Origin: Prochlorococcus marinus str. GP2
GTDB lineage: Bacteria; Cyanobacteriota; Cyanobacteriia; PCC-6307; Cyanobiaceae
Direction: 5' to 3'
Assembly (NCBI RefSeq): GCF_000759885.1
Contig: NZ_JNAH01000004.1
Span: forward strand, 124,001 to 188,000
DNA: 64,000 bases
The translations under genes were made by a program, and so were the position numbers. The notes below the pieces were generated by a model. It made no database searches. It was given only the letters and a program-made list of their open reading frames with translations, and was not told the DNA's origin. This document shows positions 6,176 through 7,909 of this stretch, piece by piece; position 1 is the stretch's first letter, and each line of letters opens with the position of its first letter.

Positions 6176-6298
6176 TTATAGGCAATTACACTTTCCTCCC
6201 TTCCAATTAGAGCATTTTTTCTTTTTACATTTCTTTTTTTTATTTAAATATATTTTATTAATTAATAACAGTTCAGAAAAATTATACTCGAAATTCAT
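6176..6298 (-). CDS. Candidate 40-aa Cys/Lys-rich peptide beside a Fur-like box
   Basis: A complete small reading frame (ATG at 6298, TAA at 6176-6178) in the futC-ferritin gap. The product begins MNFEYNFSELLLINKIYLNK and ends with a basic half holding four cysteines: CKKKKCSNWKGGKCNC, spacing C-x4-C-x7-C-x-C. The 3' half of the gene is richer in G+C than the surrounding spacer, as expected for coding DNA. The start codon is 10 bp from the Fur-like palindrome at 6309-6327, which it would share with ferritin on the other side. It could be a metal- or Fe-S-binding peptide. It has no recognised family and could also be a chance frame. Confidence 0.45.
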   Translation of the reverse strand: MNFEYNFSELLLINKIYLNKKKKCKKKKCSNWKGGKCNCL

Positions 6299-6305
6299 TT
6301 ATGAT

Positions 6306-6334
6306 ATTGCTATTGATATTCATTATCATATAAT
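6306..6334 (+). promoter_or_regulatory. Ferritin promoter with overlapping Fur-like box
   Basis: GCTATTGATATTCATTATC at 6309-6327 matches the classical 19-bp Fur consensus GATAATGATAATCATTATC at 16 positions by my alignment. A perfect TATAAT follows at 6329-6334 and a weaker TTGCTA (6307-6312) lies 16 bp upstream of it, so the palindrome would fill the -35/-10 spacer of a promoter reading into ferritin. The leader also holds an ATACAA-AATG-TTGTAT inverted repeat at 6371-6386, about 25 bp before the ferritin start. Fur regulation is inferred. Confidence 0.6.
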
Positions 6335-6411
6335 TTAATTTATTTTAAAGGTTTAAGTAATTACTTATTTATACAAAATGTTGTATTATTTACTTAGTTT
6401 CTTCTTAAGTT

Positions 6412-6966
6412 ATGAATGAAAATAATTTAAAATTAAAGAAATTAATTAATTTTGGTCCATCTGGAAGAGCTATTGCCCAACCTATGGATAATAGTTTGTT
6501 AGATAATTTTTTTGAACATCTTACAATGGAAAGATATGCGAATGTTCAATATTTTTCGATATATCTATGGTTCCAAGAACGTGATTTAAATGGATTTGCC
6601 TCTTTTTTTCTGGGTGAATCACAAGGTGAAATGGAACACGCTCAAAAATTTGCTGATTATCTCATTGCAAGGGGACAAAACGTGAAATTGAATGAAATTC
6701 CAGCACCAGTTCAGACTTGGGACTCAATAGAAGAATTGATTTCTTTTTCTTTCAATATGGAGGCTGATTTAACTTCATCTTTACAACAACTTTATTCAAT
6801 TTCAGAAAGAATTTCAGATACAAGATCCAACGTATTTTTAGATCCAATTGTAGAAGCTCAAACGAAATCTGAAGATGAATTCGCAAATATACTGGGAAAA
6901 GTTAAGTTTGCTTCTAATCAACCTTCTGCAATCTTATTGATAGACAGTGAATTAAAACAAAAATAA
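6412..6966 (+). CDS. ftn: Bacterial non-heme ferritin
   Basis: A 184-aa iron-storage protein of the ferritin four-helix family. It would form a 24-mer cage that oxidises Fe(II) and stores it as ferric mineral. Ferroxidase-site residues are visible: Glu in helix A (ERYANVQYF), the E-x2-H of helix B (GEMEHAQKF) and further Glu residues in later helices. About 20 N-terminal residues precede the ferritin core. Its 3' end overlaps the convergent small gene at 6952 by 15 bp. The upstream Fur-like promoter suggests control by iron status. Confidence 0.93.
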   Translation: MNENNLKLKKLINFGPSGRAIAQPMDNSLLDNFFEHLTMERYANVQYFSIYLWFQERDLNGFASFFLGESQGEMEHAQKFADYLIARGQNVKLNEIPAPVQTWDSIEELISFSFNMEADLTSSLQQLYSISERISDTRSNVFLDPIVEAQTKSEDEFANILGKVKFASNQPSAILLIDSELKQK

Positions 6967-7242
6967 ATTACTTTCATATATATTTTCAATTATTGTCCTT
7001 TTTGTTTTTTCAATAAGTAAATTTGAAAAATTTATTTTCTCACTATTTGTTTTATTCAAGAATTCAGCTATTCTATAGATCTCATTAACCCTTTGAAATA
7101 TATTTTTATTTTCATAATATAGTCTTTCCTTTAACCCCTTATTTTGAGTAGTTTTAAGGGATTCTCTTATATTTCTGATTCGATTAGTCAATACATCTAT
7201 TTCTATTAATAGGGTATTAGTAATTGATTGTGATTCTTCCAT
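6952..7242 (-). CDS. Hypothetical helical protein downstream of the CRP-family regulator
   Basis: A 96-aa charged protein, predicted almost wholly helical (ITNTLLIEIDVLTNRIRNIRE segment with heptad-like Leu/Ile), without membrane segments. It starts 3 bp after the end of the CRP-family regulator gene and is almost certainly translated from the same message. It might act with the regulator or in the same iron response. I recognise no family. Confidence 0.7.
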   Translation of the reverse strand: MEESQSITNTLLIEIDVLTNRIRNIRESLKTTQNKGLKERLYYENKNIFQRVNEIYRIAEFLNKTNSEKINFSNLLIEKTKRTIIENIYESNLFLF

Positions 7243-7245
7243 TTT

Positions 7246-7833
7246 CTATAGTAATGATGATTCAATAAAAGAAGGTGCAACACTGACAGTTTGAGTGCCA
7301 ACTGGAGCTATCATTAACTCAGAGGACCTTAATTTAGAAATTAACCTGGTTGATGTTACTCGTGTTGAACCAATTAATTCACCTATCCTTTCATGAGTTA
7401 ACCTAAAAGGTAATTCACACCATTGACCACATCTTCTTCCTAATCGGTTTACTAATATAGAAAATAAAGCCTGTAACCTTTGTTCAGCATTTCCCAAGTG
7501 TCTAATTCTGAGGAGTTGCAATGTCCACTCATTTACTGCATCAAAACCTACATTTTCATTAATAATTCCACTGCTATGGAACGATAAATCTGTTAATGCT
7601 TCAACGCATACACCCTCACTACATAAAAGGTCAGTTCTTAACTGGTCCCCTGACTGTAGGAAGGCTAGTGTCATCCCTTCCGTTTCTTCGCAAGGGCAAT
7701 AGACTCTTGCAATCCCACTCTCAATTTCTAGACATGTTCCTTTTGGCCTTGATGAAGGATCTATTAAAACGGATTGACCAGTTATTATTCTTACTAACTT
7801 AGAAGGTGGTTCCCCATAACTATGGAAATTCAT
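7246..7833 (-). CDS. CRP/FNR-family transcriptional regulator
   Basis: About 195 aa. The N-terminal part is a cupin-like sensor domain (GQSVLIDPSSRPKGTCLEIE, then VYCPCEETEGM and a cluster of Cys around residues 65-85). The C-terminal winged helix contains the recognition helix region LTHERIGELIGSTRVTSTRL. I start at ATG 7833 (MNFHSYGEPPS); an upstream TTG-type extension would run into the Fur-like box. The cyclic-nucleotide pocket is not well conserved, and the several Cys residues could sense redox or metal. The Fur-like boxes at the promoter point to an iron-responsive second-tier regulator. Confidence 0.88.
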   Translation of the reverse strand: MNFHSYGEPPSKLVRIITGQSVLIDPSSRPKGTCLEIESGIARVYCPCEETEGMTLAFLQSGDQLRTDLLCSEGVCVEALTDLSFHSSGIINENVGFDAVNEWTLQLLRIRHLGNAEQRLQALFSILVNRLGRRCGQWCELPFRLTHERIGELIGSTRVTSTRLISKLRSSELMIAPVGTQTVSVAPSFIESSLL

Positions 7834-7845
7834 CTGAAAGGTTTT

Positions 7846-7909
7846 GATAATGAGAATTATTATCAATTATGCACTATTTAATAACTTATTGCAATAGATT
7901 CTCATTATC
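7846..7909 (-). promoter_or_regulatory. CRP-regulator promoter bracketed by two Fur-like boxes
   Basis: GATAATGAGAATTATTATC at 7846-7864 matches the Fur consensus at 17 of 19 positions and lies 12 bp before the ATG of the CRP-family gene. On the minus strand a TTGCAA (7889-7894) and CATAAT (7866-7871) pair is separated by 17 bp, a credible promoter. A second, weaker GATAATGAGAATC-containing element lies at 7891-7909, over the -35. The two boxes thus flank the promoter. The outer box could also serve the divergent gene at 7987. Confidence 0.6.

What the first reader, a model, noticed from the sequence alone, without database searches (positions are those of the whole stretch)
6176..6334. Fur-type box shared by ferritin and a divergent 40-aa Cys/Lys-rich peptide
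A 40-codon frame on the minus strand encodes a basic peptide with four Cys (CKKKKCSNWKGGKCNC) whose start is 10 bp from a 16/19 Fur-box match that also sits inside the ferritin promoter. A divergent pair controlled from one palindrome would make the peptide part of the iron response. It has no family I recognise and is too short for usual gene callers. This could be a metal-binding or Fe-S-related micropeptide.
Basis: partly seen in the sequence, partly recalled or inferred. Interest (0 to 1): 0.72.

Follow-up and report, generated by a model that had tools for sequence, protein, structure and literature searches.

The report
Iron-switch micropeptide beside picocyanobacterial ferritin
A tiny, unnamed 40-residue protein with four fixed cysteines sits back-to-back with the iron-storage gene in Prochlorococcus and many Synechococcus relatives, shares its likely iron-sensor switch, and tends to come and go with that gene, which suggests it helps these ocean microbes handle stored iron.

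Summary
The 40-codon frame (6176-6298, minus) is a real gene: among 86 distinct orthologous sequences start, stop and four Cys are invariant, and codons 20-40 show pN/pS 0.028. It belongs to an undescribed family ending in KKKxCKxxKCSxWKGGxCxC, seen only in this taxonomic family in the genomes sampled, without Pfam or NCBIfam match.

The 16/19 Fur-type box (6309-6327) is real and kept in 107 of 107 genus sequences, although such a score is not rare in this genome. In 16 of 37 ferritin upstream regions a promoter-like element follows the box at 44-53 bp, which suggests opposite control: Fe-Fur represses the micropeptide and may activate ferritin.

The ferritin is of the SynFtn class. Of 80 genomes, all 61 with it hold the micropeptide family (one copy decayed, at least three the short type), 8 hold only the micropeptide, 11 neither (p 7e-9, uncorrected for descent).

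Best reading: a Fur-repressed, probably metal- or Fe-S-binding partner of SynFtn, Bfd-like in role but not a homologue. Coding, conservation and linkage are shown; regulation, metal binding and function are inferred.

The parts
6176..6298 (-). Micropeptide gene, 40 codons, ATG to TAA
   Evidence: intact orthologues, codon-level purifying selection
6182..6241 (-). Family-defining C-terminal motif, residues 20-39 (KKKKCKKKKCSNWKGGKCNC); consensus KKKxCKxxKCSxWKGGxCxC
   Evidence: K20, C24, K28, C29, S30, W32, G34, G35, C37, C39 invariant in the 37 members aligned (G35 is R in 1 of 86 genus sequences, and S in L218)
6309..6327 (.). Fur-type box GCTATTGATATTCATTATC (16/19)
6380..6391 (+). GTTGTATTATTT, likely ferritin -10 promoter element (consensus CTTGTATCATTT in relatives), 52 bp downstream of the Fur box
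   Evidence: element and spacing 44-53 bp in 16 of 37 ferritin upstream regions; the window's own 10/12 match is not significant alone (shuffle p 0.145)
6412..6966 (+). Ferritin, SynFtn class
   Evidence: PF00210, E 8.3e-28; PDB 5OUW 187.3 bits, best entry outside that group 78.9; 5OUW named as SynFtn in PMC8743623
5111..6169 (+). ABC transporter ATPase, convergent with the micropeptide gene (6 bp between stop codons); FutC-like by context and recall
   Evidence: ABC_tran; no NCBIfam match shown reached its cut-off
7246..7833 (-). Crp-family regulator of the same island (ATG at 7833; the ORF list starts at TTG 7866)
7846..7864 (.). 17/19 Fur-type box GATAATGAGAATTATTATC upstream of the Crp-family gene

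Best explanation
The frame encodes a genuine small protein of a family found so far only in picocyanobacteria. Its gene and the SynFtn-class ferritin gene are divergent and share one Fur-type box. Inferred mechanism: with enough iron, Fe-Fur sits on the box, blocks the micropeptide promoter that it overlaps and, from about 50 bp upstream of the ferritin -10 element, permits or activates ferritin. When iron falls Fur leaves, the micropeptide is made and ferritin synthesis drops. The peptide's four Cys (C-x4-C-x7-C-x-C) on a Lys-rich scaffold bind one metal ion or Fe-S cluster, and it works with SynFtn or just downstream of it, as a redox factor or carrier in moving stored iron: a role like bacterioferritin-associated ferredoxin, without homology to it. 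Shown here: coding, conservation, shared conserved box, box-to-element geometry in part of the family, co-occurrence and neighbourhood. Inferred: Fur binding, direction of regulation, metal binding, partnership with ferritin.
For: Codon-level selection: pN/pS 0.24 (codons 2-40), 0.028 (codons 20-40), against 0.39-1.6 in the five other frames; ATG, TAA and all four Cys in 86 of 86 distinct CDS, with Gly34 using all four third bases. Of 80 loci fetched by ferritin alone, 78 hold the peptide, L093 in part; the other two (L053, L078) begin 41 and 2 bp before ferritin. Family: 202 of 300 genomes of the taxonomic family, 32 of 40 genera; motif conserved in 37 aligned members. Box kept in 107 of 107; with the untrained E. 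coli consensus the site upstream of the ORF is the single best of its locus in 11 of 23 distant ferritin-bearing loci and 1 of 17 others. Box kept at ferritin where the micropeptide is not beside it (L204, L205, L207, L211, L212). Spacing 44-53 bp from box to element in 16 of 37. Co-occurrence: 61 of 61 ferritin-positive genomes have the family and 11 of 11 family-negative genomes lack this ferritin. Neighbourhood in those 61: 25 divergent and 8 convergent within 1 kb, 9 divergent at 4.2-4.4 kb; the change of orientation argues that linkage is not only a shared promoter. In the one 4-kb locus annotated (L211) an OprB/SLH porin, a 2OG-Fe(II) oxygenase and a solute-binding protein lie between. 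Own genome: no Fer2_BFD domain at E<=0.1, two FUR-family genes.
Against: No direct evidence of transcription, translation, iron response or metal binding. 8 of 80 genomes have the family without this ferritin; in one of them (G366, L159), and in L154 (G401, not tested for ferritin genome-wide), the gene follows a Crp-family gene, with CobW and ZnuA genes nearby in L154. A 28-aa paralogue without a nearby Fur box exists (L135, L144, L148, L160, L170, L213-L215), so the motif's function need not be tied to Fur or ferritin. In 19 of the 61 the two genes are far apart or on different contigs. If only long, intact copies count, at least 4 of the 61 drop out (G236, G281, G329 short type as read; G202 decayed) and probably two more g38 genomes (G260, G296: 32-aa frames, one search list for G260 and G296, not read). 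The matrix scan is largely circular: 15 of its 17 first ranks among 23 ferritin-bearing loci are training loci; of the 8 untrained ones 2 rank first, and 3 of 17 loci without ferritin do. The geometry motif was chosen after seeing the loci and 16 of 37 regions do not fit it at all. C-x4-C-x7-C-x-C is not a standard Fe-S motif (recalled). The AlphaFold model (helix 7-26 plus small hairpin, pLDDT 83.7, pTM 0.50) found no PDB match. Co-occurrence is not corrected for descent, and the 80 genomes were chosen to include known negatives.
Confidence: 0.4

Rival explanations
1. A Fur-regulated small basic protein acting on RNA in an iron-sparing response, as proposed for B. subtilis FbpA/FbpB/FbpC; the Cys would bind a structural or sensing metal and the Lys-rich face RNA.
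For: Size, strong positive charge and Fur-type box resemble the Fbp proteins (PMC7430163 passages: Fur-regulated small basic proteins suggested to be RNA chaperones; FbpB 48 aa). It would explain genomes with the peptide but without this ferritin.
Against: No sequence comparison with Fbp proteins was run beyond Pfam and NCBIfam scans (0 hits). Does not by itself explain why the family comes and goes with SynFtn. The review says there is no experimental evidence that FbpB binds RNA.
Confidence: 0.2
2. A mini-metallothionein or metal carrier that buffers Fe(II), Zn(II) or Cu(I) when the iron regulon is on, not specifically a ferritin partner.
For: Four Cys embedded in Lys with a CxC end; ZnuA and CobW genes near the peptide gene in L154; a second type without a nearby Fur box.
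Against: Only four Cys, against about nine in SmtA-type metallothioneins (recalled); an invariant Trp and rigid motif suggest a specific structure or partner; 23 of 40 distant loci hold ferritin.
Confidence: 0.2
3. A co-factor or sensor for the Crp-family regulator of the same island.
For: A Crp-like cluster has members in 30 of 40 distant loci; the peptide gene lies directly downstream of and co-directional with such a gene in L154 and L159; the window's Crp gene has its own 17/19 Fur-type box.
Against: The strict correlation found is with ferritin; presence of the Crp gene was not tallied genome-wide.
Confidence: 0.12
4. Not a gene: a conserved regulatory RNA or DNA segment at the 3' end of the ABC gene that happens to be open.
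For: Codons 20-28 are almost invariant also at third positions.
Against: pN/pS 0.028 in codons 20-40; Gly34 uses all four third bases; the other frames do not show the pattern; the motif is conserved as protein across genera. Rfam: one hit only, far below its gathering score and in the ABC gene. No RNA-structure covariation test was run.
Confidence: 0.02

Closest known systems
Bacterioferritin-associated ferredoxin (Bfd, Fer2_BFD, PF04324)
   Same: Small Cys-containing protein coded next to a ferritin-family gene and, by prediction here, expressed differently from it; [quoted passage not shown]
   Different: No Pfam match; Cys spacing differs from Bfd (recalled); 40 aa (Bfd is longer, recalled); the neighbour is a SynFtn-class ferritin, not a heme bacterioferritin; own genome holds no Fer2_BFD match.
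B. subtilis FbpA/FbpB/FbpC
   Same: Fur-regulated small basic proteins of the low-iron response (PMC7430163 passages).
   Different: Different phylum; no family match found; four invariant Cys here; linkage to ferritin.
Bacterial metallothionein (SmtA/BmtA)
   Same: Small Cys-rich protein; marine Synechococcus WH8102 has a Zur-activated one, BmtA (PMC9337993 passages).
   Different: Only four Cys, Lys-rich, Fur-type rather than Zur-type box, no family match.
SynFtn ferritin class (the neighbour, not the peptide)
   Same: SynFtn homologues are reported as confined almost exclusively to marine Synechococcus and Prochlorococcus (PMC8743623 passages); the micropeptide was found only in the same taxonomic family.
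   Different: No partner protein of SynFtn is named in the passages read.

Membership tests
Bfd (Fer2_BFD) | Match to the Fer2_BFD profile | tested here: not met
   0 Pfam families at E<=1 for three members
Bfd (Fer2_BFD) | Four Cys in the Bfd spacing (recalled: C-x-C near the start, C-x2-C later) | tested here: not met
   C-x4-C-x7-C-x-C
Bfd (Fer2_BFD) | Binds a [2Fe-2S] cluster | not testable with these tools
   four invariant Cys only
Bfd (Fer2_BFD) | Coded next to a ferritin-family gene | tested here: met
   within 1 kb in 33 of 61, within 6 kb in 42 of 61; not in 19 of 61
FbpA/B/C (Fur-regulated basic proteins) | Fur control | tested here: inconclusive
   conserved Fur-type box; no binding or expression data
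FbpA/B/C (Fur-regulated basic proteins) | Sequence homology | tested here: inconclusive
   no Pfam or NCBIfam hit; no direct comparison made
FbpA/B/C (Fur-regulated basic proteins) | Works with a Fur-regulated sRNA | not testable with these tools
   none
Metallothionein | High Cys content binding several metals | tested here: not met
   4 Cys in 40 aa, enough for one site
SynFtn-class ferritin (the neighbour) | Closest solved relative is SynFtn | tested here: met
   5OUW 187.3 bits; best outside the group 78.9; 5OUW named as SynFtn in PMC8743623
SynFtn-class ferritin (the neighbour) | Lacks the site C side chains | not tested
   residues not compared

The most novel reading that the evidence does not exclude
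A dedicated iron-release or iron-delivery factor of the SynFtn ferritin class: a short, four-Cys, Lys-rich micropeptide, unrelated to Bfd, switched on by loss of Fe-Fur at the same box that, as an upstream activator site, switches ferritin on when iron is plentiful. This would be a one-box reciprocal store/release toggle in the ocean's most abundant phototrophs.
Probability: 0.22. Interest if true: 0.82.

Novelty: new variant of a known kind. Interest (0 to 1): 0.62.

Why it matters
[quoted passage not shown] A micropeptide that comes and goes with SynFtn and shares its Fur-type box is a concrete candidate partner and makes the storage-or-stress question testable in Prochlorococcus and Synechococcus. 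It also adds a gene family without a Pfam or NCBIfam model, present in 202 of 300 picocyanobacterial genomes searched.

Tried and rejected
Non-coding explanation: rejected by codon tests; Rfam gave only a sub-threshold sroH hit in the ABC gene. Phage or viral origin: no relatives, but BLAST's low-complexity filter may mask this Lys-rich query, so these negatives are weak. Fold match: none at E<=10, so the second aligner had nothing to compare. PDB sequence: only chance matches (E 3.2 and 3.8). A conserved palindrome ATACAA-N4-TTGTAT in the ferritin leader was considered as a second regulator site; the perfect palindrome was found only in the window among the regions scanned, while the right half persists as CTTGTATCATTT, so I read it as the ferritin promoter element. 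That motif is post hoc; the constant spacing is the better evidence. Zur instead of Fur as regulator: not excluded by consensus score, since a probable Zur site in this genome also scores 16/19; the core ATGA-N3-TCA favours Fur (recalled motif knowledge). Earlier description: a text search for four motif strings found 0 papers; listings showed no title or abstract start naming such a peptide, and passages read in PMC9723758 have no small-protein mention. Steglich et al. 2008 (PMC2518516: passages; section 14 whole) report 113 new MED4 ORFs of 33-130 aa; this ORF may be among them, but the supplementary tables were out of reach. Whether genome annotators list it as a hypothetical protein was not checked.

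Full report
OBSERVATION. Between its ATG and the ferritin ATG (6412) are 113 bp. The best match to the classical Fur box is GCTATTGATATTCATTATC at 6309-6327, 16/19, 10 bp from the peptide's start. In the own genome a match of at least 16/19 occurs at 8 distinct places (11 strand-specific hits against 4 for the reversed control), so the score alone proves little.

IT IS A GENE. tblastn finds it in 157 of 200 genomes of the genus, 63 of 67 good-quality ones. Of 109 fetched genus loci (29 taken because they match; 80 taken by ferritin alone) 107 gave a hit; L053 and L078 begin 41 and 2 bp before ferritin, and L093 holds only a part. The codon set is the window plus 106 loci (full-length, ungapped hits; L093 dropped), 86 distinct sequences: start, stop and the four Cys are invariant, while Gly34 uses all four third bases and Gly35 does so in 85 of 86, the other reading Arg. 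Uncorrected Nei-Gojobori proportions give pN/pS 0.24 for codons 2-40, 0.66 for codons 2-19 and 0.028 for codons 20-40; the five other frames give 0.39 to 1.6. The two genome collections may overlap, so loci are not all independent.

IT IS A FAMILY. A profile of 15 genus members matches 202 of 300 genomes of the taxonomic family, 32 of 40 genera. Forty distant loci, chosen because they match, show a variable N-terminus and a constant end, KKKxCKxxKCSxWKGGxCxC; in the 37 members aligned K20, C24, K28, C29, S30, W32, G34, G35, C37 and C39 are invariant; L218, not aligned, has Ser for G35. The DNA pattern for CKxxKCxxWKGGxCxC is found in 29 of 291 genomes of the phylum: 29 of the 37 of this family in that draw and 0 of the 254 others; the backward control found none. 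The broader profile finds 16 of 146 genomes of the class, all 16 in this family, where 17 were drawn. Pfam and NCBIfam give nothing. No phage, viral or solved-structure relative was found, with the filter caveat given under rejected ideas.

TWO TYPES. The long type sits mostly at ferritin. A 28-residue type, almost only the motif (for example MADKKKKKKCKKKKCSNWKGGKCICYGQ), occurs elsewhere without a nearby strong Fur box: in genus g38 (L135, L144, L148, L160), beside the long type in G253 (L170), and in some genomes of the window's genus (L213, L214; L215 in a frame cut short upstream). In G202 it is decaying, with a stop and a lost Cys. In G236 and G329 (g38) and in G202 the spacer at ferritin holds no match to the profile (L204-L206).

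NEIGHBOURHOOD AND CO-OCCURRENCE. In 80 family genomes, chosen for completeness and to include known negatives, 61 have both this ferritin (E<=1e-30) and the micropeptide family, 8 only the micropeptide, 11 neither and 0 only ferritin (Fisher p 7e-9, not corrected for descent; the decayed G202 copy counts as present). Of the 61, the nearest pair is divergent within 1 kb in 25, convergent within 1 kb in 8, divergent at 4.2-4.4 kb in 9, far on the same contig in 15 and on different contigs in 4. In L211, the 4-kb locus annotated, an OprB/SLH porin, a 2OG-Fe(II) oxygenase and a solute-binding protein lie between. Of the 40 distant loci 23 hold ferritin and 30 a member of a Crp-like cluster. Without ferritin in the locus, the gene lies by an ABC permease in L162 and L166, by Crp-like genes in L137, L142, L146, L155, L158 and L169, and by Crp, CobW and ZnuA genes in L154. 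The window ferritin is of the SynFtn class (5OUW identified in PMC8743623), itself reported as almost confined to marine picocyanobacteria.

REGULATION. A 15-16/19 match is kept in 107 of 107 genus sequences (69 at 15, 38 at 16). With the untrained consensus the upstream site is the single best of its locus in 11 of 23 distant ferritin-bearing loci and in 1 of 17 others, L153. With a matrix trained on 15 of these loci the upstream site ranks first in 17 of 23 (15 of them training loci) and in 3 of 17 without ferritin, L153, L162, L166, the last two looking related. Loci without a convincing upstream site include L137, L142, L146, L154, L157-L159, L163-L165, L169 and the short-type loci. At ferritin the box stays where the peptide gene is elsewhere: 14/19 in L204, L205, L211, L212 and 15/19 in L207, 12/19 in L206. 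Downstream of the box, in the ferritin direction, an element CTTGTATCATTT (GTTGTATTATTT in the window) follows at a nearly constant distance: element >=10/12, box >=13/19 and spacing 44-53 bp in 16 of 37 regions, window included. L133 has 62 bp; L205, L206, L211 and L212 fit the spacing (42-54 bp) with weaker matches; the other 16 do not fit. The motif was chosen after seeing these loci. The simplest reading is a ferritin -10 region with Fur bound about 50-70 bp upstream, where it could activate or be neutral, while for the micropeptide the same box overlaps the start region and should repress. bfd is also expressed differently from its neighbour bfr (PMC7762939 passage).

MECHANISM. I infer that the peptide is made when iron is scarce, binds one metal or Fe-S cluster through its four Cys and helps move iron out of, or on from, SynFtn. 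This gives the co-occurrence, the two orientations, the Fur-type box and the Cys invariance one cause. It does not explain the short paralogue or the 8 genomes without ferritin, which favour a wider role (RNA-binding like Fbp, metal carrier, or partner of the Crp-family protein). The own genome shows no Fer2_BFD match, so no canonical Bfd was found there.

VERDICT. Observation confirmed; interpretation partly supported, with the sign of ferritin regulation probably opposite to that of the peptide. My odds: coding gene linked to iron about 0.9; the ferritin-partner mechanism about 0.4.

Noticed in passing
window 7846-7864: 17/19 Fur-type box GATAATGAGAATTATTATC directly upstream of a Crp-family regulator gene (ATG 7833, minus); Crp-like genes recur in 30 of 40 distant loci.
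   Followed up: partly
window 6380-6391: CTTGTATCATTT-like element at nearly fixed distance from the Fur box in 16 of 37 regions, likely the ferritin promoter; suggests that Fur may activate SynFtn.
   Followed up: partly
L135, L144, L148, L160, L170, L213-L215: 28-residue paralogue consisting almost only of the Cys/Lys motif, without a strong Fur box nearby, among mostly unnamed ORFs.
   Followed up: partly
window 6952-7242: 96-aa minus-strand ORF between ferritin and the Crp gene; a similarly placed ORF cluster recurs in 17 of 40 distant loci, with direct similarity seen only in L204 (37.5%).
   Followed up: no
L221 1960-2184: Short-type micropeptide whose motif runs into an unrelated 74-aa frame after WKGK, perhaps a recombinant or frameshifted copy.
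   Followed up: no
genome G367: Four SynFtn-class ferritin genes, three with equal scores at separate places; only one lies next to the micropeptide gene.
   Followed up: no
G243:C1:431234-431758: The ferritin match beside a micropeptide gene carries one TAA inside the matched stretch; broken gene or alignment edge not resolved.
   Followed up: no
G000:C5:89367-89391 (L230): Overlapping Fur/Zur-like sites between a ZnuA-like gene (named by eye) and an ABC ATPase, near a second FUR-family gene: probable Zur operator.
   Followed up: partly
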